From Paramicrobacterium fandaimingii (GTDB lineage: Bacteria > Actinomycetota > Actinomycetes > Actinomycetales > Microbacteriaceae): a DNA stretch of 64,000 nt. The notes beneath the pieces are model-generated. The model saw nothing but the letters and a program-made list of their open reading frames with translations. It did not search any database and was not told the DNA's origin. The stretch covers positions 2,790,001 through 2,854,000 of the forward strand of contig NZ_CP061170.1 of NCBI RefSeq assembly GCF_011751745.2, written 5' to 3'. The stretch's first letter is position 1; the number at the start of each line of letters is the position of its first letter. Position numbers and translations under genes: made by a program. Below are positions 48,620 to 59,678 of the stretch, piece after piece.

Positions 48620-49240
48620 CTACTCCGCGCGCTCGTAGACCGGCTCGTCGTCTGCGCCGAGAATCACCTCGATCTCGTCACCGTCAAACGCAGCGAGGTA
48701 GCCCTCGGGCAGCGCAAAGACCTTCAGAAGGGCAGCTCGTGAACGCACGAGCTGCCCGACGCTCACCACCGTCAGTGTGCGTTCATCGGGTTCCTCGCCT
48801 GGAAACCCGAGAAACCACCCCGAGTCGCGCTTGTCTGTCGGCGTCGTATGGTGCGCGACCAGAGCGTGCGATTCGAGCACGCCTTCTGCGCACACCACTT
48901 TCTGGGTAAAAACGGCGGGTGCGGCACTCTTAAGCCCCGCGAGGCGCGAAACGGCGGACTGTTCGGCCTCAACGGCGAGAGCGAGCGTGACGTTCGAAAC
49001 CCAGTCGTGCAGGTCGCCCGCGAAGTCCGGGCAGTGCACGACGAGGGTCTCCGCATCGGCAACGAGCTTGAATGCACTCCAGCCGGCGCGCAGCACGAAC
49101 CCGTCAACGATGAGCTCGGCTGGTGCCGCTTGGATGACGTCGAAGAACGCCTCGACCTGCGGGCCGAGCACCGGGTCTGCCGTGCACGAAATGGTTTGTC
49201 CTGCGATTTGTCGTGAGTACGTCTCAGCCACGCTTCTCAT
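48620..49240 (-). CDS. DUF2185/Imm33-like protein at the end of the T7SS locus
   Basis: A 206-aa protein. The N-terminal ~115 residues are an uncharacterised beta-rich region (YSRQIAGQTISCTADPVLG, LHDWVSNVTLALAVEAEQ). The C-terminal part carries VAHHTTPTDKRDSGWFLGFPGEEPDE, which resembles the DSGW...G-E core of the DUF2185/Imm33 immunity-protein family. Such proteins are predicted to neutralise secreted toxins. It is downstream of the terminator at 49340-49374, so it is probably transcribed separately. No obvious cognate toxin lies in the window. Confidence 0.65.
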   Translation of the reverse strand: MRSVAETYSRQIAGQTISCTADPVLGPQVEAFFDVIQAAPAELIVDGFVLRAGWSAFKLVADAETLVVHCPDFAGDLHDWVSNVTLALAVEAEQSAVSRLAGLKSAAPAVFTQKVVCAEGVLESHALVAHHTTPTDKRDSGWFLGFPGEEPDERTLTVVSVGQLVRSRAALLKVFALPEGYLAAFDGDEIEVILGADDEPVYERAE

Positions 49241-49339
49241 CGTATCGACGACCCTCCGCGTGTTCCGGAGCGACTACCGTGAAATTTCGGATGCCTCGAC
49301 AGCGGCCCCGCTGAAATCGAGGTGCCGCACACACAAGAA

Positions 49340-49374
49340 GGGCCCGAATCCGGTGTAGTACCGGACTCGGGCCC
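49340..49374 (-). terminator. Terminator after the second WXG100 gene
   Basis: A 14-bp stem (49340-49353 with 49361-49374) with a 7-nt loop. The one imperfect pair is G-U in the minus-strand RNA but A-C in the plus-strand RNA, and the minus-strand transcript continues TTCTTGTGTG. Both facts favour termination of the minus-strand T7SS transcript, 30 nt after the WXG100 stop. Confidence 0.8.
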
Positions 49375-49403
49375 CTCCAGCTCCGGCTTTCGCCGAGTGA
49401 TGC

Positions 49404-49679
49404 CTAAAGCGTCGAGTCGTGATCGTGCGTACGAGCCGACTTGTCGCGAAGCGATGTGGCCATCTCGTTGACGCCGTTGACCGCCTGGTCGATACCGGAG
49501 TTGAGCTCGCGGTAACCCTCGCCAAAGCGATCCGAAGCAACCTCGGTAACGAAACCCTCTCCGAGAAGGTCTTCGACCTTGCCCAGAAGCGTCGTCAGCT
49601 CGGTACGGAGCGTCTCCGCACCCGTGTCGAGTGCGCCGGCCGTAGCCTCAACCTGTTCGTGACTAAAGTGAAAAACCAT
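49404..49679 (-). CDS. WXG100-like secreted protein, paralog B
   Basis: A 91-aa helical protein of ESAT-6/WXG100 size. It is a clear paralog of the 94-aa protein at 53474-53758; both start MVFH and share the block LLG-x-GFVTEV-x-S-x-RFG-x-GYR. The turn that is W-x-G in standard members reads GEGF, so the tryptophan is absent. Predicted to be a helical-hairpin substrate of the EssC-like ATPase. A GGGGA-N4-TCCCC dyad stands 71 bp upstream, and a terminator follows. Confidence 0.75.
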   Translation of the reverse strand: MVFHFSHEQVEATAGALDTGAETLRTELTTLLGKVEDLLGEGFVTEVASDRFGEGYRELNSGIDQAVNGVNEMATSLRDKSARTHDHDSTL

Positions 49680-49747
49680 TCTGGCAACCCCTTCTCGTTA
49701 CTTTCAACGTCTGGAACCCAGTTAACCGTGCGAATGTATCTCTGCCA

Positions 49748-49765
49748 ATGGGGAGGAGTCCCCAT
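49748..49765. promoter_or_regulatory. Shared dyad upstream of WXG100 paralog B
   Basis: ATGGGGA-GGAG-TCCCCAT is a perfect 7-bp-arm dyad. Its core GGGGA-N4-TCCCC is repeated upstream of paralog A at 53834-53847. On the minus strand it is followed about 20 nt later by GGTTAAC, which corresponds to GGTTAGC in the other copy. It overlaps the 3' end region of the membrane-protein gene by position only, since that gene ends at 49772. Confidence 0.7.
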
Positions 49766-49771
49766 CTGCTG

Positions 49772-50626
49772 CTACGTGAGTGGTGTGGCGATCTCTCGCA
49801 TCATCGAGACCGCAGTCTCTGTTGAGACTCGCCCACTTTCGTGCAGCTGTCTCACGCCGTCAGCGGTACGTCGACGGAGGTCGTCTTCATTGAGGTCATC
49901 CCGCTTTCGAAGGATCTTCGCAATGTGCTCGCCCAGCGCAGCGTCGAGATCTCGTCCTTCCGCGGTGTCTCCATGCAGTGCTTGGAGCATTGTCTGTCTC
50001 TTCCTCACCCACAAGAACAGGGCGATGTAGCCGACTGCGGTGACCGCAACGCAGACGGCTCCGACCGTTGCTCCCGGCAGAAACCAGTAACCGTAGTTCG
50101 AAACATGCATACTGAACATCACGGTGCCGAGCGCAAACAAGGCCCCGTAGACGATGAGCAGCGGCGGCGAATATGGAAGAGATCGGGGCAGGCTTCGCTT
50201 CTCGATCACAAGAGACGCGACGAGCGATGCGACGCCGAGAAGTCCGGTGATCGCGCTTGGCACCCCGATATCAATGAAGTAGTCGTCGAAATTGGTCGGG
50301 GAATTAGGCAGGAACAAGACGCCGACCGTCACGGTGAGCAGGATGATCACCAAGACCATAACGATCTTCTTTGGCTTGTTTGCGTCTTTGCGCGCAATCG
50401 ACATCCGCCGATCACGATCAGACTGAAGCACGTTGATGATCTTTTTTCCAGATCCCCCTGCCACGGATGCGCGGAGCGCCGTGAGAAGTTGCGTCGGTGA
50501 CGACCAGGTTGGCAACTCCTGCGCGTGCGCCAGCGAGATCTGTTCATCGCCTGAGGAGGGAGTCAGGTAATCGCGCTCCGGCACCTGCCGAAGGACTTCC
50601 TGCCAGTTCGAACGCGCGTCGGTCAT
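49772..50626 (-). CDS. T7SS-linked multipass membrane protein
   Basis: A 284-aa protein with a ~90-residue cytoplasmic N terminus (QEVLRQVPERDYLTPSS, then a basic RDRRMSIARKDANKPKK), about five hydrophobic segments (IVMVLVIILLTVTVGVLFL, VPSAITGLLGVASLVASLVI, PPLLIVYGALFALGTVMF, FLPGATVGAVCVAVTAVGYIALFLW) and a charged C-terminal helical tail. I recognise no family. It sits in the T7SS gene row and is a candidate membrane component in place of the missing EccD/EssB-type subunits; that is inference from position. GC is visibly lower than in flanking regions. Confidence 0.75.
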   Translation of the reverse strand: MTDARSNWQEVLRQVPERDYLTPSSGDEQISLAHAQELPTWSSPTQLLTALRASVAGGSGKKIINVLQSDRDRRMSIARKDANKPKKIVMVLVIILLTVTVGVLFLPNSPTNFDDYFIDIGVPSAITGLLGVASLVASLVIEKRSLPRSLPYSPPLLIVYGALFALGTVMFSMHVSNYGYWFLPGATVGAVCVAVTAVGYIALFLWVRKRQTMLQALHGDTAEGRDLDAALGEHIAKILRKRDDLNEDDLRRRTADGVRQLHESGRVSTETAVSMMREIATPLT

Positions 50627-50635
50627 AGGCCCCTT

Positions 50636-51208
50636 CTAATCGACGCTCAGACTACCAGCCAGTGCGACTGCATCGTCGAAAACCACACCGATCATTTGAG
50701 CCTGCATATCGACGATGTCCACAATCACGAGCACGTACTTTTCCACTCGCGCGAGACGCAGACTTCCCGCGACGAGCGCATCTTCACCGTCGATTTCGAC
50801 AGGGATCGTATGAGCCACGCTGACAATGCGCTTGCCGTCGACGGGCTCGTGTTCGACGACCTGCGGGAACGAGTATGTAGCAGCATCACCAGTGAGCAAA
50901 TCTGCAACCGGGGTCACTCCGTCGTACTCCATGATGTAGCTGTGAGCCACAGTTTCCGTACCGAACTCGCGAGGAAAATACCAGAACTTGCGTGACGCGA
51001 TCTCGTGACGAACGTCAGTGATAACGCGCGCCGCCCTCTCGGTGCGGTCGCGCAGGTCAGCTTCACCAGGTAGACCGTCTGTCGTTTGGAAGGCAACAGC
51101 CTTTGCCCACTGCTCGGTCGACTCGTACGGACCCGAGGGAAATTGAGTGGGAACTTCGATCCATGTCTCAGTGTCGAAATCGACGTCTGTCGTGGACTGT
51201 GACTTCAT
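50636..51208 (-). CDS. Unknown T7SS-linked protein (190 aa)
   Basis: A soluble, acidic protein with no signal peptide or transmembrane helix. Notable segments are TWIEVPTQFPSGPYESTEQWAKAV, FWYFPREFGTETVAHSYIMEYDG and a beta-rich C terminus (KRIVSVAHTIPVEIDGED, RVEKYVLVIVDIVDMQAQMIGVVFDDAV). It resembles in length and layout the 208-aa neighbour with which it overlaps by 4 bp; both may derive from one fold. No known family. Chaperone, adaptor or immunity roles are possible, none is shown. Confidence 0.7.
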   Translation of the reverse strand: MKSQSTTDVDFDTETWIEVPTQFPSGPYESTEQWAKAVAFQTTDGLPGEADLRDRTERAARVITDVRHEIASRKFWYFPREFGTETVAHSYIMEYDGVTPVADLLTGDAATYSFPQVVEHEPVDGKRIVSVAHTIPVEIDGEDALVAGSLRLARVEKYVLVIVDIVDMQAQMIGVVFDDAVALAGSLSVD

Positions 51209-51831
51209 GGTCTCCGCATCCAGTTGAAGGTCCCGGCGATGGCATCGAAGAGGTCGCTGACAATGCCGATGAGGTCGCTCTTCTCTTCGCCTGGCGGCAC
51301 GAGCAACGTTGCGCTGAGCATCAGCGGCGCACGCCCGGTTGATTTCGGCGCCTCAAAAAGATGGTGAACGGTCAACGCGCCGACCCCGGCATCACCGTCG
51401 GGCAACGTCGGCTGTCGTTCTTCCCAGCGCCAGACGGCGAGCCCGTTCACGAGGCTCTCCTCGAGCTCATGGCTCGCCATCAGACGATTCCGAAAGTCAT
51501 CGAGCTGGTGCGCACCACCGATCGGTGCCGGCAGAACCACAAGAGAAGCGGGAAGCAGAGCATTGTCGATGGCCTTCACGGGAAGGTAGATCGACGATGC
51601 ACGCCGCTTCTTCATATCTACGAACAGCCCATGCGTCAGCGCTCGGTAGTACATGTAATCTTTCGCCTGCCCGCGAGGCTGAAACACCTTCTTCAGGCTG
51701 TCGACGAATACCTTCTCCGCTTCGTCGTTGACGGCGAAACGCTTCCACCCCGGCGGAAGGAGAAGTGAGTAGGTGACAGACGGGCGACTCGCCTCGGGAG
51801 CCTCACCCGTCAACTCCGACTTCAGATCCAT
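51205..51831 (-). CDS. Unknown T7SS-linked protein (208 aa)
   Basis: A soluble protein opening SVTYSLLLPPGWKRFAVNDEAEKVFVDSLKKVF, with a middle DYMYYRALTHGLFVDMKKRRASSIYLP and a C terminus ending AIAGTFNWMRRP. No motif of a known enzyme. It is translationally coupled to the 190-aa gene (ATGA overlap) and follows the 407-aa LXG-like gene by 30 bp. The position next to a candidate secreted protein allows an immunity or targeting-chaperone role, but sequence alone does not decide. Confidence 0.7.
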   Translation of the reverse strand: MDLKSELTGEAPEASRPSVTYSLLLPPGWKRFAVNDEAEKVFVDSLKKVFQPRGQAKDYMYYRALTHGLFVDMKKRRASSIYLPVKAIDNALLPASLVVLPAPIGGAHQLDDFRNRLMASHELEESLVNGLAVWRWEERQPTLPDGDAGVGALTVHHLFEAPKSTGRAPLMLSATLLVPPGEEKSDLIGIVSDLFDAIAGTFNWMRRP

Positions 51832-51861
51832 ACAGGCCCCATCCCCGCCGTAAAACCCACG

Positions 51862-53085
51862 CTAGTAACCGGCATTTGCCTCGTTGTATGGCGGGTTGGT
51901 GATGTACGGTGACACCACGTTGTCCCTGGTGCCTGTGTAGAGCCCATTCAGCGACGACGCGTTGTTGATCGCGTCCATATAACTCTGCGGGTGGGTGAGC
52001 CCATACACGTTGTGGGACAAATTGTTCATCGGCGTCGACGGTACCGGAGTCCGGGGCGGCGTCAGACCAAACTCATTGCGCACGGGGACACTTCTCGGGC
52101 CGGCCGCTGCATTGCGCCACGCGCCGCTCACCTCCTGAACCGTCTGCCTACCAGAACCTCTCCCCGCTGCACGCATGCCACCGAGGACATCGTCACCGTG
52201 CCTCACGGAATTCACAAGCCCTCGACCGCCGCGCCCGACGATCCGGGTAACACCTCCGCCGAATGGAATGAGGCCGACGCCTCCGATGATGACGTCAGAC
52301 CACGACCCCTCACCTTGAGACAGGGCATAAATGTCACTAGCCAGCTGGACTACCGCGACAACAGTCGTGATGATCAGAATCGCACCGGCGATCGGGCCGG
52401 AAACGAAGAGCGCGACGACAGCGAGGACAAAGCAGATCTTGTTCAAGATCTTCATCAGGTCGGCAAACCAACCATCGTTGTTGTCCGCCTCGGTGATCGC
52501 CGAATCGATACCCGTTACGGCGTCATCGTATCCCTGTTCCCACACGACGAAGTGAGCATCGTAATCTTCCCACAGCCCCTCAAGCGTCGATCGCGCTGTC
52601 GTGAGAGTTGACTCGGCATCATCGAGGTCGCCCTGTGCAGCTGCCTTCTGTTCGTCAGACGCTTCGTCTTCCCAGATCCAGGTGGTGCTGTTGTCCGAAA
52701 CAGCGCCTTGGGCATCGTTGCGCGTCTCTACTGCGTTCGACACACTCGTCTGGGCAGTCTGAATTTCTTCGATGAGCGGATCCATGTTGCGCTTCGCCGC
52801 TCGCAGAACCTCTGCGTACCCGACAAGCGCGTCACCTGTCCCGCTGTATCGTGTCGCCGCTTTGCTGAGCTCACCATGAATCTTGGCCGCGGACTCGCGA
52901 ACCTTGTCAACGGCTTCGCTAATCTGTGTCGTTCCTTCGCCGATCTCCTTAAGGGAGGTCGCCGTCTTATCCATGCTTTCGCCAAGATCACGGAGGTAGG
53001 CACCGCGCGAGTCGATGCTCTCAGCGTTACCTTCCGAAGGCATGAGCTCATTGCCCTTCGGGGAGAGGCTGCCCAAGTAGTCCAT
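51862..53085 (-). CDS. LXG/WXG-like putative T7SS-secreted protein (407 aa)
   Basis: The first ~200 residues are long amphipathic helices like an LXG or T7SS-signal domain (SIDSRGAYLRDLGESMDKTATSLKEIGEG, YSGTGDALVGYAEVLRAAKRNMDPLIEEIQTAQ, STLEGLWEDYDAHFVVWEQGYDDAV). Then two hydrophobic stretches (ICFVLAVVALFVSGPIAGAILIITTVVAVV), a Gly-rich hinge (GLIPFGGGVTRIVGRGGRGLV) seen in many polymorphic toxins, and a ~110-residue C terminus rich in Pro/Asn with no toxin motif that I recognise. It could be a toxin with an unknown tip, a structural protein, or one that lost its toxin. A second in-frame ATG lies at residue 15. Confidence 0.75.
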   Translation of the reverse strand: MDYLGSLSPKGNELMPSEGNAESIDSRGAYLRDLGESMDKTATSLKEIGEGTTQISEAVDKVRESAAKIHGELSKAATRYSGTGDALVGYAEVLRAAKRNMDPLIEEIQTAQTSVSNAVETRNDAQGAVSDNSTTWIWEDEASDEQKAAAQGDLDDAESTLTTARSTLEGLWEDYDAHFVVWEQGYDDAVTGIDSAITEADNNDGWFADLMKILNKICFVLAVVALFVSGPIAGAILIITTVVAVVQLASDIYALSQGEGSWSDVIIGGVGLIPFGGGVTRIVGRGGRGLVNSVRHGDDVLGGMRAAGRGSGRQTVQEVSGAWRNAAAGPRSVPVRNEFGLTPPRTPVPSTPMNNLSHNVYGLTHPQSYMDAINNASSLNGLYTGTRDNVVSPYITNPPYNEANAGY

Positions 53086-53112
53086 GAGGTGAGTTCACTT
53101 CCTTTTCGAAAA

Positions 53113-53466
53113 TCAGACGGAGGCGTACGGAGAGTTATTAGGTCCAGGCTGAGAAAGCGCCGTATGCTCGGTCGTCTCGAGTTGACTGGCGAGGTTTCCT
53201 TCGTACTCGTTGTACGCCTGGATGATGCCGTGGAGATGCTCTCTCAGCTTGCCGAGCCCATCCGAGAGCTCTTGCCGATTGTCGTTCCAGTCTTTCTCGA
53301 AGTCCCTCACCTTGTCCGTGAGATCCCGACGGTTATACGGCGTACCCACCTCATCAGCGACGTCTTGGTTCCGGTCTGCCACCGCGGCAAAGTCAGTGAT
53401 TGCTATTCTCAAGCCATTGTCAACAGCCTCGAGATCTTGCATGTTGAGCCAAATCTTGCCAGGCAT
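53113..53466 (-). CDS. Small helical T7SS partner protein (117 aa)
   Basis: A WXG100-sized helical protein: NMQDLEAVDNGLRIAITDFAAVADRNQDV, then DFEKDWNDNRQELSDGLGKLREHLHGIIQAYNEYEGNLAS. A tryptophan sits in the inter-helix region as W-N-D, and YNEYE gives a Y-x3-E-like tail. Start at MPGKIWLNM. It lies between WXG paralog A (7 bp away) and the 407-aa LXG-like gene (27 bp away). Two small helical proteins ahead of an LXG protein recalls the Lap partner proteins of Firmicutes T7SS effectors; that parallel is inference. Confidence 0.75.
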   Translation of the reverse strand: MPGKIWLNMQDLEAVDNGLRIAITDFAAVADRNQDVADEVGTPYNRRDLTDKVRDFEKDWNDNRQELSDGLGKLREHLHGIIQAYNEYEGNLASQLETTEHTALSQPGPNNSPYASV

Positions 53467-53473
53467 TACTGCA

Positions 53474-53758
53474 TCACCCTTCTGCCAGCTTGTGGTCGAA
53501 TTCGCCGGACTTCTCGCCAATTGTGCGGAGACCCGACGCCATGTCAGCAAGACCACCTACTGCCTGGGCAAGGCCATGCGACAACTGCCTGTAGCCATTT
53601 CCAAATCGTTCGGACGAAACTTCCGTGACGAATCCCACACCGAGGAGGTCTTCGACCTCGCGCAGTAGATCGTCGACCGTGATCACCATCGACTCACCGC
53701 CGTCCTCGAGCACTTTGGCGGTGGCGTTCATCTCGCCGAAGTCCATGTGAAACACCAT
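53474..53758 (-). CDS. WXG100-like secreted protein, paralog A
   Basis: A 94-aa helical-hairpin protein, paralog of the 91-aa protein at 49404. The turn reads LLGVGFVTEVSSERFGNGY, with no W-x-G. It is the first gene of the WXG-LXG group and is separated from the EssC-like gene by 101 bp that carry the GGGGA-N4-TCCCC dyad, so it starts a new transcript or a strongly regulated segment. Predicted substrate of the T7SS or dimer partner of the other small proteins. Confidence 0.78.
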   Translation of the reverse strand: MVFHMDFGEMNATAKVLEDGGESMVITVDDLLREVEDLLGVGFVTEVSSERFGNGYRQLSHGLAQAVGGLADMASGLRTIGEKSGEFDHKLAEG

Positions 53759-53833
53759 GACTTGACCGCTCCCCTCTCACATCCCGCGCACTTTACTGTC
53801 TATACGCTAACCAAAACTACCCACTTTGACGAT

Positions 53834-53847
53834 GGGGACTACTCCCC
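53834..53847. promoter_or_regulatory. Shared dyad upstream of WXG100 paralog A
   Basis: GGGGA-CTAC-TCCCC, the same dyad as upstream of paralog B, 76 bp before the start. On the minus strand both copies continue TCCCCAT and are followed 19-20 nt later by GGTTA[AG]C. This suggests one regulator for both WXG100 transcripts. Confidence 0.7.
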
Positions 53848-53859
53848 GAAATCCGTCCT

Positions 53860-56800
53860 TCACGGCACGACGAGCGGCACCTGCACCCGCAGTACCTGGC
53901 CGTTTTGCACCATGAATCCTCGCCCCTCCGGAGACTCGTGGCGGGCAACACGCGGGAACGGTGTCTTGAAGACGGCATCCCCATCGTGAGTATCCGGTTT
54001 CAGAACGATTCCTGCCCTGCCCGCCTTCATCTCACCGATCAGGCCGATTCCCGAGGACAGATTGGCGATGTCAGCCTCGGTGATCAGCACGTGATCGCTT
54101 CGATTGACCTTCTGGGCGAGTGTCGCCAGCGGTTTGTCTGCGGCCGACCCGCTGAATTGAGTGACGTTTTCGACAACGATAACCAGTTTGTCCGTAATCT
54201 CTTCGTCGCTGACGATCTCGGTCAACTCTTTCACAAGCTCGACCACATCGTCCGCCTTCACAGCACTTCGCGTCCACTCCATGTCGTCTGTGAGCTTCGC
54301 ACGACGCCCGGCAATGTGGAAGAGCTTTGCACCGGGATCCCACGCCTTGATCGTTCGCGACAGCGCTCGCAGCGTGTTCGTCCTGCCACTTCGTGGGGGC
54401 CCACCGATGAGGAAGGTTCCGATCGGCTCGAATCCACACGGCGCCAGCGTCTCCTCCGAGATCCCGACGACGGGGAGATCGTTCACAGCATCTGGCATGT
54501 CTTCGATCGGTGCTTCCTTCGGCAACGCGCCCACCTCAGGAGCCCGACCGACTCCCCGATCGACCAGCTCCGCGGCAAGCGACTCGGTCGCTCTCGTCTG
54601 CTCTGATACGTTCGACGTCCCGCCGATCACGGCCAATTGGGTCTCATAGCCATCGACGACAGCACGTCCTGGGGGTGAGCTTTCGTCGAGCACATCCTTC
54701 GGTGCTCCCAAAAGCTGATACGAGGCCGGGTCAGGCAACCGCAGAATGGTGCGCCGCTGTATCGCCGCTGTGACAGCGCTTGGGACGCTCCCGCTGCGGT
54801 CGGCCGTCAGCACGACGTGCATGCCCAGCGGTCGGCCTTCGCCGAGAAGCCGAATGAAGGCGTTGTAGAGCGGCGCGCGCGCGAGCGTGGTCTCGTACTC
54901 CGATCGGAAGCCGCCGAAACCGTCAAGCAGCACAAGAATCCGTGGCTCGCTGGGGGCACCGGCGAGTTCTCGGTATTCGGCGATGCTTCCCGCGTTGACC
55001 TTCGAGAAGTCCTCTGACCTCCGGTTGAGCTCACCGCGCAACGTTTTCAGGAGACGCGAGATACGTTCGTAATCGTCGCCAGGCACGACGGATCCGACGT
55101 GCGGAAGCGCCTCGATCGAACGCAGCGATCCGGTTCCGAAGTCCATCCCATACACGTGCACCGGGCCACCCTTGTCGCCAAGAACCGCGCTGATGGCCAG
55201 CGTGCGCAGCAACGCGGTCTTGCCCGTTCCTCCCGTGCCATAGATCGCCATGTGTCCATCGCGGTCTGGATAGAAGCAGCTCGGCTCCTGTGCCTGCTTC
55301 TCTGGTCTGTCGCTGACTCCCATGACGATCGCATCGTCGGAGCGATGTGGCAGCTGAGTGAGGTCGTAGGTCTCGGGCAGATCGTCGAGCCAGGGTCGGC
55401 GAGGTTCAGGTATCTGAGCGTCCATCGCTGCCGCGACGAATGAGGCGACCATTCGAGCCTGATCGTTCGGGCCCAGGTCTTCCTCCTCTTCGTGGGCGTC
55501 GCTCTCGACATCGGGTTCCCACGGTGTGAGCGTTCCGAAGTGGAACTCGGCGACGTCGACGGCGCTCTTCTCCGGCTCATCCGACGTCCACCCGCCGGCG
55601 TAGCCCGACTGGAATGGGATCAGTCGTCCCGGTCCGGTCTTCGCAATTCCTCGCCCGGGAATCGTCGGATCGAACGTTCCCGCGATCTTGTCGCCGACGA
55701 CGTCTTTCGAATCGCTCTCATCTGCCATGCGCAAGGCGACGCGCAGGTTTGTATTGGCCCGGAGGTTGTCTTTGATGACACCGGCGGGTCGCTGGGTCGC
55801 CATGATCAGGTGGATGCCGAGAGAGCGGCCTCGCTGCGCAATGTCGACGACGCCGTCAACAAACTCCGGAACCTCTCCAGCCAACGCGGCGAACTCGTCA
55901 ATGACCAGCACGAGAGCGGGTGGGCATTCTGGGTCGCCTCGCTTCTCGAGCTCCAGAAGGTCTTTGGCCTTCTTTCGATTCAGCACGTGCTCGCGGTAGT
56001 GCAGCTCGGCCCGAAGGCTCGTGAGGGCGCGGCGCACCAAGTGCGGGCTCAGATCAGTGACCAGTCCCACGCAATGAGGCAAATTGACGCACTCTGCGAA
56101 CGCGGAACCGCCCTTGTAATCGACGAAGAGGAACGTCACTCGATCGGGGCTGTATTCCGCCGCCATGCCGAGAACCCACGCCTGCAGAAACTCTGACTTA
56201 CCGGACCCGGTTGTTCCGCCGACCAGGGCGTGGGGGCCCTGAACCCGAAGATCGAGGTGCATCGCATCGGGAGAGCCCTGGCCGATCAGCGCACGCAGTG
56301 TGCCCGCGCGCTTGCGCCTCACCGGCGCTCCGCCGCTCCGGTCGATGATCGACGCGTTCTGGCTCCATCGCTCAAGCGCTGCCTGTGGGTCGTCTGCGAG
56401 GTCTGTGCCCGTGAGGGTCAACAGCGACACGCTTCGAGGTAGGTCGCTCGAATCGGCGATCACCGCTCCGGCATCGACAACAGGCGCGAGCCGTCGAGCG
56501 AGAACCGTCGCGTAATGCTGAGAGACGCCCTCAACATCCACGTTGTCAACCATGCGGCCCTGACGAACATAGCTGACCTGCGCATGCTCGAGCCCGGAGG
56601 CCACGTCAACGACTGTGCGGCAGGCCGCGGGCAACGCTTCGATGGTCGGTGCCATCCAGATCGCATAGATTCTCGCCTCTGCGGCTCGCTCAATCAGCTG
56701 CACGAGGCGCGCGCGGTCAACGTCAACATCGTTGTCGATGAACATGACGAGAACGGGAGTCTCCGGCTCGAAGTCAGACTCGAATCTGTCGTCGCCAACT

Positions 56801-58350
56801 TTTGTGCCGCGATGCGCGGCCGACGCGTCATCGGCGTGCGGGCCCCGCGCGATATCGCTTGATCGCAAATTTCCGATTCTTTCGGCGACAAGTCCCTCGA
56901 GTGCGTTGAGGAGAGCCGTTCCCGTAGCCGGATTGTCTGCGAGAGGAAAGTCACCCAACGGATTGTGTGGCGACGTCGTGTGCGGCATCCATTTGAGCCA
57001 TTCAAACTCGCTCGCGATCCCCGTGCTCGTCAATGCTGCAAACGTGACCTCGGATGGCGAATGCAGACCGGCGAGCTGAACGCCGAGTGCACGCACCGTG
57101 TCGCAGACGGCGCTTGTCGCTCCGCAGATGCCCAGCGCGCCAGCGATGTGTGGGTTCTCGACGACGGGCACATGTGCAATCTGCTCAAACCGAGATTGCA
57201 GGTCTTTGAGACGCACCCGATAATCTTCCAGACCACCCTCTTTTTCGAGGTTGCCCACCGTCAGACGTCGCGGCATCGACCCGATTCCGAGCCTCAGATC
57301 GAGAAAGTTCCAGTGCTCGGGACGCCGCGTCCAGAGCATCGGGCCAAGCTGCTGCGCCTCGTCGAAGATTTCGGCAACAGACGGGCTTTCACGCAAACGC
57401 GTCACGCGTTCCTGCGGCTCTTCGTTCACCATCCGATCTTCAATGGCCTCGAGCTGAAGCTCGAAGTCGAAGATCTCGCGTTGCTGCTTCTTCGATGTAC
57501 GGGAACTCTGCATCAAGAAATTCCCGATCATCATCATGGGCGCCATGGCGATGAATCCCAGACTCAGCGGATTCCGCGTCATTGCATACATGAAGCCGCC
57601 CATGAGCACCGGAGCGATCATCATGATCCACGGGAACGGGCGAGGTTCCTTATCCTTCGGTATTTCCGGTGCCGGAATCTCTTCGCCGACATAGCGCACT
57701 TCCACCCGAGGAGACCGGTTGAAGCCAAGAAGGCCTCCACGCTCGATGATCGAGCGTTCGCCTGCATCCGTATCGTTAAGCGGAGTCACGGTGATCACCG
57801 TGTCTCCCAGCGTCGCTCGACGCCCCTCCATCATGCGCAGACGGGGAACGAGCCCTCCATCGACGAGAATGCCATTCGCCGAGTTGAGGTCGACAATCTC
57901 GGTTCCTGCCGCCGTGATCTCTATGCGCGCGTGCTTCTTCGACACCATCGGATCGTTGATCGTGACAGTGGCCTCTGCGTCGCGCCCGATCGTTCCGCTG
58001 CCTTCAGCCAAAAGCGTCTCGCGACCGGCGTCCGGACCGCTCAGAATCGTGAGCACAGCGGCAGCGGTCTCGTCTGTGCGACTCGCTGCATCGACGACGG
58101 AGACGTCGAAACCGGAGCCCATCGCAGACTCTCCGATGGGGCTGTCGGGATCGAGAGTCACGCGCTGGCTGCCATCGGGAGATGTCACAGCCAGCGTCAC
58201 GTCGTCAGTGGCCCATGGCGCCAGCGAGAGGTTGGGGTCATCGTGCAGAAATGTGCGAGCAACGTCACCGACAGTCGCCGTCGAGTCGGCCGTCACGACG
58301 ACGTCTGATGTCGCACCGTTCTCTCGACGAAGGACGAGCTTCAGCTTCAT
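53860..58350 (-). CDS. EssC/EccC-like FtsK-SpoIIIE ATPase of a type VII secretion system
   Basis: A 1496-aa motor protein. A ubiquitin-like beta domain (1-85) precedes an FHA domain (~100-190, GRDAEATVTINDPMVSKKHARI...NSANGILVDGG). Two membrane helices follow (~237-280, WIMMIAPVLMGGFMYAM and LGFIAMAPMMMIGNFLM), then three FtsK-type ATPase modules. Module 1 has GGTTGSGKSE (near 717) and FLFVDYKGG. Module 2 has GTGGTGKT (near 1040) and LVLLDGFGGF. Module 3 has GGPPRSGRT (near 1318) with Arg in place of the Walker Lys, so it is probably catalytically weak. The N-terminal FHA and single chain resemble Firmicutes EssC more than split mycobacterial EccC. Coupled to the RDD-FHA gene by a 4-bp overlap. 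Confidence 0.9.
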   Translation of the reverse strand: MKLKLVLRRENGATSDVVVTADSTATVGDVARTFLHDDPNLSLAPWATDDVTLAVTSPDGSQRVTLDPDSPIGESAMGSGFDVSVVDAASRTDETAAAVLTILSGPDAGRETLLAEGSGTIGRDAEATVTINDPMVSKKHARIEITAAGTEIVDLNSANGILVDGGLVPRLRMMEGRRATLGDTVITVTPLNDTDAGERSIIERGGLLGFNRSPRVEVRYVGEEIPAPEIPKDKEPRPFPWIMMIAPVLMGGFMYAMTRNPLSLGFIAMAPMMMIGNFLMQSSRTSKKQQREIFDFELQLEAIEDRMVNEEPQERVTRLRESPSVAEIFDEAQQLGPMLWTRRPEHWNFLDLRLGIGSMPRRLTVGNLEKEGGLEDYRVRLKDLQSRFEQIAHVPVVENPHIAGALGICGATSAVCDTVRALGVQLAGLHSPSEVTFAALTSTGIASEFEWLKWMPHTTSPHNPLGDFPLADNPATGTALLNALEGLVAERIGNLRSSDIARGPHADDASAAHRGTKVGDDRFESDFEPETPVLVMFIDNDVDVDRARLVQLIERAAEARIYAIWMAPTIEALPAACRTVVDVASGLEHAQVSYVRQGRMVDNVDVEGVSQHYATVLARRLAPVVDAGAVIADSSDLPRSVSLLTLTGTDLADDPQAALERWSQNASIIDRSGGAPVRRKRAGTLRALIGQGSPDAMHLDLRVQGPHALVGGTTGSGKSEFLQAWVLGMAAEYSPDRVTFLFVDYKGGSAFAECVNLPHCVGLVTDLSPHLVRRALTSLRAELHYREHVLNRKKAKDLLELEKRGDPECPPALVLVIDEFAALAGEVPEFVDGVVDIAQRGRSLGIHLIMATQRPAGVIKDNLRANTNLRVALRMADESDSKDVVGDKIAGTFDPTIPGRGIAKTGPGRLIPFQSGYAGGWTSDEPEKSAVDVAEFHFGTLTPWEPDVESDAHEEEEDLGPNDQARMVASFVAAAMDAQIPEPRRPWLDDLPETYDLTQLPHRSDDAIVMGVSDRPEKQAQEPSCFYPDRDGHMAIYGTGGTGKTALLRTLAISAVLGDKGGPVHVYGMDFGTGSLRSIEALPHVGSVVPGDDYERISRLLKTLRGELNRRSEDFSKVNAGSIAEYRELAGAPSEPRILVLLDGFGGFRSEYETTLARAPLYNAFIRLLGEGRPLGMHVVLTADRSGSVPSAVTAAIQRRTILRLPDPASYQLLGAPKDVLDESSPPGRAVVDGYETQLAVIGGTSNVSEQTRATESLAAELVDRGVGRAPEVGALPKEAPIEDMPDAVNDLPVVGISEETLAPCGFEPIGTFLIGGPPRSGRTNTLRALSRTIKAWDPGAKLFHIAGRRAKLTDDMEWTRSAVKADDVVELVKELTEIVSDEEITDKLVIVVENVTQFSGSAADKPLATLAQKVNRSDHVLITEADIANLSSGIGLIGEMKAGRAGIVLKPDTHDGDAVFKTPFPRVARHESPEGRGFMVQNGQVLRVQVPLVVP

Positions 58351-59678
58351 GAACGCGCTCCCTTCATGAGAATTCGAAACTCACAGTCTCCGCATCGAAC
58401 GACGCTCCCCGTCAGCCAGGTCGGCACGAACGGCTCAAGTGCTCGTTCGCTGCCATCAGGCTGAACGATCACCGTTCCGTTTGACGACCCTCGGTCTTCC
58501 ACCCAGACCCCTCGGGCTTCGCCTCCGAAAAGGGCGTGGGTCTTCGACATCGAGTGCGACGGGTCGTTTACAGCGACAAGGTTGACGTGTTCACCGTCGC
58601 GTGCCTCGGGATTGCGCCCGACGACGACGGGCGCGTCGGTGAGCCCGATGGAGACTCCCCCGCCCTCGACAACGTATTCGACCGATTCTGTGTGGGGTGC
58701 GAGTTGCGCATCTGCACCACTGTCGGCGGATGCCGTGGCAGAGATCGTATCTTCAGAGGCGACGAGCGCAGAAGCTGCAGATGGTGGTGCAGGATCAGAC
58801 GCAGACGCCGGTGCCGCAGGAGTAGGCGCAGGTGCAGGCGGCACGCTGACGGCCCACTCGTCGCGGCTGTCACCGGGCGGAAGAATCGGATTCTCGCCGA
58901 CGACGCTCAGTCGGGAGCGCTCCCCCGGCGCAAAGTGGCTGTCGATTGCCGTCGAGTCTAATGCCGGCAAATCGGTCTCGACGATTCTCTCGGGGCGGGC
59001 AATCCGGCGCTCTGCTCGGCGCAGCGCCTTGAGGTCCATCGGGTTGATCCCGAGGCGAATGTCGATGACTCGGCTCTTCGACACTCTGTCGAGCCAGCCG
59101 ATGCCTCGCGCGCTCCACAGCGGCGAGCAGAGAATGAGTGCGGGTCCGAACAGCGGAAGCACAACGTTGGCTGCCTGCAGAATGAGAGCACGCAGCACGA
59201 TGCGCCAGAACCCCGGCTTTCGCATCTTCACGACGCTCACAGACCGGATACCGGTCAGTGCCCTGCCGACCGTCATCCCCTTCAGCCCATGCAGGGCGAC
59301 CTCGACGATGATGAAAATCCAGCCGAGAAGCATTCCGCCCAGCATGATGATGATCAGAAGCACGAAGTTCGGTTGCTTGATGAAGACCTCGATGCCCGGC
59401 CTCGCCCAGTTGGCGCCGGCGATCAGAAACCACGCGGCGGTCAGGCCGGGAGATGCAACGATCAGATAGCACACGATGTCCGAGAAGTACGCGAGGGAGC
59501 GTCGCCCAGATGACGCCGGGACGATGCCGAGTCGGTCAGCGCTGAGCAGCGCCTCCGCATACTCTTCACGATCATGAGCACGTGCTGCGGCTTTTTCTGC
59601 CGCGGGGTCCCTCACCGTCATCGCCTGCACCTGCTGCTCGGCTTCACGCCGGGCACGACGACCATCCGCAACCGTCAC
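58347..59678 (-). CDS. RDD-domain membrane protein with C-terminal FHA domain
   Basis: A 443-aa protein. Residues ~55-215 are an RDD-type membrane domain (RRSLAYFSDIVCYLIVASPGLTAAWFLIAG, LLIIIMLGGMLLGWIFIIVEVALHG, KGMTVGRALTGIRSV). A ~100-residue Ala/Pro/Ser-rich linker follows. The FHA domain fills ~345-440 (PVVVGRNPEARDGEHVNLVAVNDPSHSMSKTHALF, EDRGSSNGTVIV). FHA domains bind phosphothreonine, and the next gene's product also has one, so a Ser/Thr kinase may control the apparatus; no kinase gene is in the window. It is the first gene of the T7SS row. Confidence 0.87.
   Translation of the reverse strand: MTVADGRRARREAEQQVQAMTVRDPAAEKAAARAHDREEYAEALLSADRLGIVPASSGRRSLAYFSDIVCYLIVASPGLTAAWFLIAGANWARPGIEVFIKQPNFVLLIIIMLGGMLLGWIFIIVEVALHGLKGMTVGRALTGIRSVSVVKMRKPGFWRIVLRALILQAANVVLPLFGPALILCSPLWSARGIGWLDRVSKSRVIDIRLGINPMDLKALRRAERRIARPERIVETDLPALDSTAIDSHFAPGERSRLSVVGENPILPPGDSRDEWAVSVPPAPAPTPAAPASASDPAPPSAASALVASEDTISATASADSGADAQLAPHTESVEYVVEGGGVSIGLTDAPVVVGRNPEARDGEHVNLVAVNDPSHSMSKTHALFGGEARGVWVEDRGSSNGTVIVQPDGSERALEPFVPTWLTGSVVRCGDCEFRILMKGARS

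What the first reader, a model, noticed from the sequence alone, without database searches (positions are those of the whole stretch)
48620..59678. Minimal T7SS locus of mixed type in an actinomycete
One row of minus-strand genes encodes an EssC-like ATPase with an N-terminal FHA domain, an RDD-FHA membrane protein, two WXG100-like paralogs, a small helical protein and an LXG-like 407-aa protein. None of EccB, EccD, EccE, MycP, EssA or EssB is visible in the window. The ATPase architecture resembles Firmicutes EssC. The set may be a reduced system, with the 284-aa five-helix protein and the two ~200-aa unknowns as lineage-specific parts.
Basis: partly seen in the sequence, partly recalled or inferred. 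Interest (0 to 1): 0.85.

Follow-up and report, generated by a model that had tools for sequence, protein, structure and literature searches.

The report
Half of a two-locus secretion system
This actinobacterium appears to keep the motor and cargo genes of a type VII protein secretion machine in one place and its likely sensor, switch and cell-wall parts two million bases away, so the machine looks split rather than minimal, and its motor protein seems to carry a built-in ubiquitin-like part that most such machines make separately.

Summary
The genes described are real and sit in one minus-strand row (48620-59678). They look like the motor/cargo half of a type VII secretion system (T7SS) of Microbacteriaceae. 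"Minimal" is not supported. In 9 of 27 related genomes the ATPase gene lies within 15 kb of a large Ig/fn3 protein gene (0.48 expected), in five of them in the order Ig/fn3 - MoxR - DUF58 - transglutaminase - ATPase. Here the corresponding module (PP2C, FHA, Ser/Thr kinase, Ig/fn3 of 1772 aa, MoxR, DUF58, transglutaminase) lies 2.05 Mb away.

EccB and EssB were not found; no YukD or mycosin hit passed cut-off. The closest described type is T7SSd. The module has the gene order of the bifidobacterial PFNA operon, read in print as a host-signal sensor; my searches found no paper tying it to T7SS. Verdict: new variant of a known kind. Secretion is inferred, not shown.

The parts
58347..59678 (-). 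RDD-FHA membrane protein, 443 aa; 4-bp overlap with the ATPase gene
   Evidence: four TM segments by hydropathy; same slot before the ATPase in 11 fetched loci
53860..58350 (-). EssC/EccC-type ATPase, 1496 aa, three NTPase modules (Walker A 712 GTTGSGKS, 1038 GTGGTGKT, 1317 GPPRSGRT with K replaced by R)
   Evidence: relatives in 168 of 299 family genomes at E<=1e-60
58084..58350 (-). N-terminal ubiquitin-like domain of the ATPase (residues 1-89), predicted
57763..58077 (-). FHA domain of the ATPase (residues 92-196) with intact phosphothreonine-binding residues
   Evidence: G122 R123 S137 H140 N159 G160 invariant in the 30 rows (13 of 43 family ATPases were left out of that alignment)
53474..53758 (-). 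WXG100-like protein a, 94 aa, lacks the W-x-G turn
53113..53466 (-). small helical protein, 117 aa from the ATG (147 aa from an upstream GTG); candidate partner (Lap-like) of the LXG protein
   Evidence: sits next to LXG genes in relatives
51862..53085 (-). LXG-like substrate, 407 aa: T7SS_signal domain, two hydrophobic segments, short C-terminal part
   Evidence: C-terminal parts vary between relatives and paralogues (output cut in the middle)
51205..51831 (-). U208, soluble unknown; 4-bp overlap with next gene
   Evidence: profile similar to U190 (hhalign 94.3%, E 1e-7)
50636..51208 (-). U190, unknown, paralogue of U208
49772..50626 (-). membrane protein, 284 aa, four TM segments by hydropathy (reader said five helices)
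49404..49679 (-). WXG100-like protein b, 91 aa, lacks the W-x-G turn
48620..49240 (-). Imm33-like protein, 206 aa, likely orphan immunity gene at the variable end of the row
   Evidence: not at this place in the close relative L035

Best explanation
The window holds the motor and cargo half of a T7SS that works like T7SSd. Shown by sequence: the genes, their order, the domains, the conserved row in relatives, and the repeated adjacency of this kind of ATPase with an Ig/fn3-MoxR-DUF58-transglutaminase module (often with kinase, PP2C and FHA genes) whose copy in this genome lies at G000:C1 784318-798878. Inferred: the ATPase is a membrane-anchored pump; its fused, predicted ubiquitin-like domain does the job of EsaB/YukD or of the EccD ubiquitin-like domain; its FHA domain reads a phosphothreonine written by the module's membrane kinase and erased by its PP2C, so that assembly or pumping is gated; the exported Ig/fn3 protein forms the part that spans or decorates the wall; WXG100-like and small helical proteins escort LXG substrates, of which the 407-aa protein is one, probably a membrane-active antibacterial effector.
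For: EssC-type ATPase and WXG100/LXG genes. Conserved row RDD-FHA, ATPase, WXG, small helical, LXG, U208 across genera. 9 of 27 genomes (8 genera) have Ig/fn3 and ATPase within 15 kb, 0.48 expected, 0 of 200,000 simulations reach 9 (uniform placement, species taken as independent). Loci that join both halves: L042 (Ig/fn3-MoxR-DUF58-TGL-RDD-FHA-ATPase-LXG-U208) and L048 (Ig/fn3-MoxR-DUF58-TGL-ATPase-WXG-small-LXG); 4-bp TGL/ATPase overlaps in L048, L053, L074, L160. Outside the family: L160 (other class) Ig/fn3-MoxR-DUF58-TGL-ATPase; L159 (other family of the order) TGL, RDD-FHA, FHA, kinase, ATPase, no Ig/fn3 in the stretch fetched. Ig/fn3 tree: the clade holding this genome's protein comes from 22 genomes, 21 with the long ATPase (most rows were picked from long-ATPase genomes). 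Kinase with one TM at 404-422, Ig/fn3 protein with N-terminal hydrophobic segment. Variable LXG C-termini, and toxin domains on large proteins beside divergent relatives of the ATPase.
Against: The two halves are 2.05 Mb apart here and unlinked in 18 of 27 genomes. 38 of 61 long-ATPase loci show none of the module's genes in the stretch fetched (at most 12 kb, usually 7-8 kb, each side). MoxR-DUF58-transglutaminase neighbourhoods are common in other bacteria (PMC6803598, passage), so part of the module is not special to T7SS. A second, shorter T7SS-like ATPase (932 aa, G000:C1 2136086-2138884) is in the genome without its own Ig/fn3 gene, and in 8 of the 12 Ig/fn3-bearing genomes that lack the long ATPase at 1e-60 a short ATPase follows the same module; so the module could serve it. 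G028, G103 and G294 have the long ATPase but only the other Ig/fn3 clade; the one G004 row seen is of that clade too. The FHA motif is degraded in the divergent ATPases L062-L072. No expression, secretion or phosphorylation data.
Confidence: 0.6

Rival explanations
1. The kinase-Ig/fn3-MoxR-DUF58-transglutaminase module belongs to the second, short ATPase (or to both), and the window's long ATPase works with only its own row: a truly small T7SS.
For: In 8 of the 12 Ig/fn3-bearing genomes without the long ATPase (20 such genomes searched), a short ATPase follows the module. G000 has such a short ATPase with no Ig/fn3 of its own. 18 of 27 long-ATPase genomes show no linkage.
Against: This genome's Ig/fn3 protein falls in the clade that comes almost only from long-ATPase genomes (21 of 22, biased by choice of genomes), and within that clade the module lies by the long ATPase in several genera.
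Confidence: 0.2
2. The row is mainly a polymorphic-toxin/immunity cargo island riding with a T7SS ATPase; U208/U190/TM284 are immunity proteins and the core machine is unknown.
For: G+C dips to 0.58-0.60 over 49-55 kb against 0.61-0.67 around it; Imm33-like gene at the variable end; LXG copies with different C-termini.
Against: RDD-FHA, ATPase, WXG, small helical, LXG and U208 stay in order across genera, which is more than cargo would be expected to do.
Confidence: 0.12
3. The ATPase is an EssC relative with two FHA domains as in T7SSb, and the ubiquitin-like call is a modelling error.
For: T7SSb EssC has N-terminal FHA domains (PMC11217815); the sequence profile gives only a weak hit to a designed ubiquitin (E 0.15); no YukD hit by Pfam; 12 of 19 ATPases outside the family and 9 of 12 divergent family ones are not hit by the profile of this domain.
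Against: Two separate models give the same strand-strand-helix-strand order; 45 PDB chains at E<=1e-3, mostly ubiquitin-like or FERM ubiquitin-like domains, with T7SS ubiquitin-like domains among the VIA rows.
Confidence: 0.08

Closest known systems
T7SSd (TsdA, C, D, H, I; Garrett et al. 2024, PMC11217815; abstract, section 9 and passages seen)
   Same: FHA-bearing EssC-type ATPase with intact phosphothreonine residues, WXG100 protein, Ser/Thr kinase, large Ig-like exported protein, actinobacterial, LXG-like candidate substrate
   Different: Predicted ubiquitin-like domain fused to the ATPase (T7SSd reported to lack any); kinase and Ig protein encoded far away; extra RDD-FHA, PP2C, FHA, MoxR, DUF58, transglutaminase; TsdH not sought; no C-terminal TM seen in the Ig/fn3 protein
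T7SSe (Garrett et al. 2024, same sections)
   Same: PP2C-type phosphatase and a separate FHA protein besides kinase and Ig protein
   Different: T7SSe is a Bacillota type with a free ubiquitin-like TseB and a DUF6382-FHA protein; no DUF6382 hit at E<=0.01 here
PFNA operon of bifidobacteria (PMC8430577, PMC6803598; passages seen)
   Same: Same gene order kinase - fn3 - MoxR ATPase - DUF58 - transglutaminase by domain, with phosphatase and FHA genes in some species
   Different: Described as unique to bifidobacteria and as a sensor of host immune signals; here in Microbacteriaceae and near T7SS ATPases in part of the relatives. Sequence homology to the bifidobacterial proteins was not tested
T7SSb (EssC/EsaB/EssB)
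   Same: ATPase with N-terminal FHA; LXG-like substrate with small helical partners
   Different: No EssB; no YukD hit over cut-off
T7SSa / ESX
   Same: EccC-type motor, WXG100 proteins, ubiquitin-like domain fused to another component (EccD there)
   Different: EccB not found in 12 of 12 genomes although the model rings in 42 of 148 class genomes

Membership tests
T7SS in general | EccC/EssC-type FtsK/SpoIIIE ATPase | tested here: met
   TIGR03928 541 bits, TIGR03924 328, TIGR03925 315, each below its curated cut-off; PF01580 192 bits over cut-off
T7SS in general | WXG100 protein encoded with it | tested here: met
   P0002 over PF06013 cut-off; P0009 paralogue below it; both lack the W-x-G turn
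T7SS in general | Export depends on the ATPase | not testable with these tools
   needs deletion and secretome
T7SSd | N-terminal FHA with conserved phosphothreonine residues on the ATPase | tested here: met
   G122 R123 S137 H140 N159 G160 invariant in 30 rows (13 of 43 left out, of which L062-L072 are degraded); role of these residues recalled
T7SSd | Ser/Thr kinase TsdD | tested here: inconclusive
   kinase of 536 aa with one TM present in the genome but 2.05 Mb away; homology to TsdD not tested
T7SSd | Large Ig-like TsdI with signal peptide and C-terminal TM | tested here: inconclusive
   1772-aa Ig/fn3 protein with N-terminal hydrophobic segment, no C-terminal TM by hydropathy; 2.05 Mb away
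T7SSd | TsdH, small single-TM protein | not tested
   no sequence of TsdH at hand
T7SSd | ATPase groups with TsdC in a tree | not testable with these tools
T7SSd | No ubiquitin-like component (as reported) | tested here: not met
   a ubiquitin-like domain is predicted at the ATPase N-terminus
T7SSa | EccB | tested here: not met
   0 of 12 genomes; model rings in 42 of 148 class genomes
T7SSa | Mycosin MycP | tested here: inconclusive
   subtilase 209 bits, cut-off 278.75, beside enolase and DivIC, not with T7SS genes
T7SSb | EssB/YukC | tested here: not met
   0 of 12 genomes; rings in the B. subtilis control
T7SSb | Free EsaB/YukD | tested here: inconclusive
   no match over cut-off in 12 genomes, weak ones in 6 (E 0.12-0.46); the same model does not see the fused domain, so a diverged free copy could be missed
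PFNA operon (784-kb module) | kinase-fn3-MoxR-DUF58-transglutaminase in this order | tested here: met
   by Pfam domain; a 262-aa gene lies between kinase and Ig/fn3
PFNA operon (784-kb module) | Orthology with the bifidobacterial proteins | not tested
   no named Bifidobacterium sequence was fetched

The most novel reading that the evidence does not exclude
The PFNA operon, read in print as a bifidobacterial sensor of host immune signals, is the regulatory and cell-wall module of an actinobacterial T7SS (T7SSd sense): its kinase and fn3 protein are TsdD and TsdI, and the 'missing' ubiquitin-like TsdB is the N-terminal domain of the ATPase.
Probability: 0.55. Interest if true: 0.82.

Novelty: new variant of a known kind. 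Interest (0 to 1): 0.62.

Why it matters
It would suggest where the ubiquitin-like part went in actinobacterial T7SSd (a puzzle stated in PMC11217815), and join two lines of work that, in the papers seen, do not mention each other's genes (PMC11217815 has no MoxR, DUF58 or transglutaminase; the two PFNA papers have no 'secretion'). It gives a directly testable phosphorylation switch (membrane kinase, PP2C, FHA on the motor) for T7SS export. It also warns that a locus that looks minimal may be one half of a split system.

Tried and rejected

Papers: PMC11217815 abstract, section 9 and passages; PMC8430577, PMC6803598, PMC1779556, PMC6106888, PMC5552033 passages; others only in search listings (TelE paper PMC10434224: listing and start of abstract). 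'No paper ties PFNA to T7SS' rests in this library only. For Microbacteriaceae, searches found no description of this system; two passing mentions exist: PMC5552033 lists T7SS proteins in Rathayibacter toxicus regions, PMC6106888 says Pontimonas salivibrio has none.

Selection told: of 168 family genomes with a match (which scored two candidates a genome) I fetched 40 regions by spread of identity, plus L002 and L003; L002 is the same contig as G085's. Alignment A1 holds 30 of 43 ATPases; L059, L061 and the divergent L062-L072 were left out. Of 41 phylum genomes I fetched 20; in L175 no ATPase was called, so 61 loci are counted. The 27 genomes were chosen from long-ATPase genomes, so clade counts lean that way; G082, G085 and G079 are not in the Ig tree (rows under 700 aa, or not fetched). 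In one search I dropped a duplicate row (L051_0), used only the first piece of G022's interrupted gene, and G005 could not be placed; of 12 Ig-bearing genomes without the long ATPase at 1e-60, 10 fall in the other clade and G020 in this one (it has a 1365-aa ATPase-like frame). Gene calls in scripts come from a simple G+C-by-codon-position rule that missed DUF58 in L081 and other genes; FHA-bearing families can cross-hit in the HMM labels. One search's printout was cut in the middle. G028, G103 and G294 were first counted together with G004 as having only the other clade; G004 was not searched with the Ig/fn3 protein, so that is now said of three.

Full report
What is there. On the minus strand from 59678 down to 48620 run: RDD-FHA protein (443 aa), ATPase (1496 aa, 4-bp overlap with the gene before), WXG100-like a, a 117-aa helical protein, an LXG-like 407-aa protein, U208, U190 (4-bp overlap), a 284-aa membrane protein, WXG100-like b, and an Imm33-like protein. 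The genome is one contig of 3.62 Mb; the ATPase is 92% identical to that of Microbacterium sp. MPKO10, so I take this to be a Microbacteriaceae. Neighbours on both sides are ordinary (MMPL and ABC-2 transporters, SDR, FtsX/ABC). The cargo part has lower G+C (0.58-0.60) than its surroundings (0.61-0.67).

How common. 168 of 299 family genomes have a match at E<=1e-60, and 41 of 396 phylum genomes at E<=1e-70. Of the loci fetched from the family, 11 have RDD-FHA directly before the ATPase and 10 have U208 after an LXG gene, in up to eight genera. LXG copies differ in their C-terminal parts, some loci carry two LXG units, and three of four divergent ATPase loci tested sit beside large proteins with TNT, Ntox15 or Gln_amidase domains (L067, L068, L069; not L071). 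This is the pattern of a polymorphic-effector exporter. The window's LXG protein has two hydrophobic segments, which makes a membrane-active effector the likeliest guess. U208 and U190 are diverged paralogues (hhalign probability 94.3, E 1e-7; small alignments).

The other half. Some relatives have MoxR, DUF58, transglutaminase and an Ig/fn3 protein directly before the ATPase. The 27 long-ATPase genomes searched all hold such an Ig/fn3 protein. In this genome it is at C1 788833-794151 in a run PP2C (784318), FHA, Ser/Thr kinase, 262-aa protein, Ig/fn3, MoxR, DUF58, transglutaminase (to 798878). In 9 of 27 genomes, of eight genera, Ig/fn3 and ATPase lie within 15 kb, against 0.48 expected; none of 200,000 simulations reached 9 (species are related, so the odds are only a guide). 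Five of the nine (G082, G236, G234, G136, G132) have the module before the ATPase in the order Ig/fn3 to transglutaminase (RDD-FHA between in G082; single members missed by the gene caller in some); in G264 and G140 other module genes lie between, and in G120 and G125 the module follows some 10 kb after it. L042 and L048 join the module to RDD-FHA and/or LXG genes in one row; L160, from another class, has Ig/fn3-MoxR-DUF58-transglutaminase-ATPase, with 4-bp overlaps at DUF58/transglutaminase and transglutaminase/ATPase. Against this, 38 of 61 long-ATPase loci have no module gene in the stretch fetched (usually 7-8 kb each side), and 18 of 27 genomes are unlinked.

A second motor. The genome also has a 932-aa ATPase (C1 2136086-2138884) without ubiquitin-like or FHA domains, beside a PP2C gene. 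In 8 of the 12 genomes that have the Ig/fn3 gene but lack the long ATPase at 1e-60, a short ATPase follows the same module. The Ig/fn3 tree splits in two: one clade from 22 genomes, 21 with the long ATPase, including this one; the other with the rows that are linked to short ATPases. So the 784-kb module more likely belongs to the window's ATPase, but sharing with the short one is not excluded. A canonical WXG100 (with W-T-G) is encoded alone beside a chaperonin gene at C1 2310861-2311151.

Known kinds. EccB and EssB were not found, YukD has no hit over cut-off (the model also misses the fused domain, so this is weak), and the only mycosin-like hit in this genome is a subtilase below cut-off beside enolase and DivIC. 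The nearest described type is T7SSd, defined by Garrett et al. (PMC11217815, section 9) by WXG100, FHA-ATPase, kinase, TsdH and Ig-like TsdI, and said to lack any ubiquitin-like protein. I do not file this as a T7SSd member: the ATPase could not be placed with TsdC, TsdH was not sought, and the 'no ubiquitin-like part' feature is not met; it looks as if it works like one. The 784-kb module has the domain order of the PFNA operon (PMC8430577, PMC6803598), which those papers call unique to bifidobacteria and tie to host immune signals; searches found no paper joining it to type VII secretion. Orthology with the bifidobacterial proteins was not tested.

Verdict. A real, widespread T7SS variant, split here in two places, with a predicted ubiquitin-like domain fused to its motor. 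The mechanism (kinase-FHA gate, wall-spanning Ig/fn3 part) is inferred from parts and order; nothing here shows export.

Noticed in passing
L112:9087-11885 (G000:C1 2136086-2138884): Second, shorter T7SS-like ATPase (932 aa) with PP2C next to it; in other genomes such ATPases follow a kinase-Ig/fn3-MoxR-DUF58-transglutaminase module.
   Followed up: partly
L100:7862-8152 (G000:C1 2310861-2311151): Lone canonical WXG100 protein (W-T-G turn) beside a Cpn60 chaperonin gene; a possible EsxA-like core substrate far from any ATPase.
   Followed up: partly
48620-49240: Imm33-like gene without an evident toxin partner nearby; not at this place in the close relative L035.
   Followed up: no
L067:14203-19899: Protein of at least 1899 aa beside a divergent ATPase with Ntox15, TNT and Gln_amidase domain hits together, cut by the locus end.
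   Followed up: no
L128:8236-9681 (G000:C1 ~1.2335 Mb): Subtilase with a mycosin-model score of 209 bits (below cut-off) between enolase/DivIC and a pyridine nucleotide oxidoreductase gene; hits to that model occur in all 12 genomes searched.
   Followed up: partly
L092 (G091:C1 2276000-2295900): Three tandem Ig/fn3 genes of 1763, 1777 and 1802 aa in one genome, a local amplification of the surface protein.
   Followed up: no
window 49000-55000: G+C dip to 0.58-0.60 over the cargo genes against 0.61-0.67 around, suggesting exchange of the cargo part.
   Followed up: no
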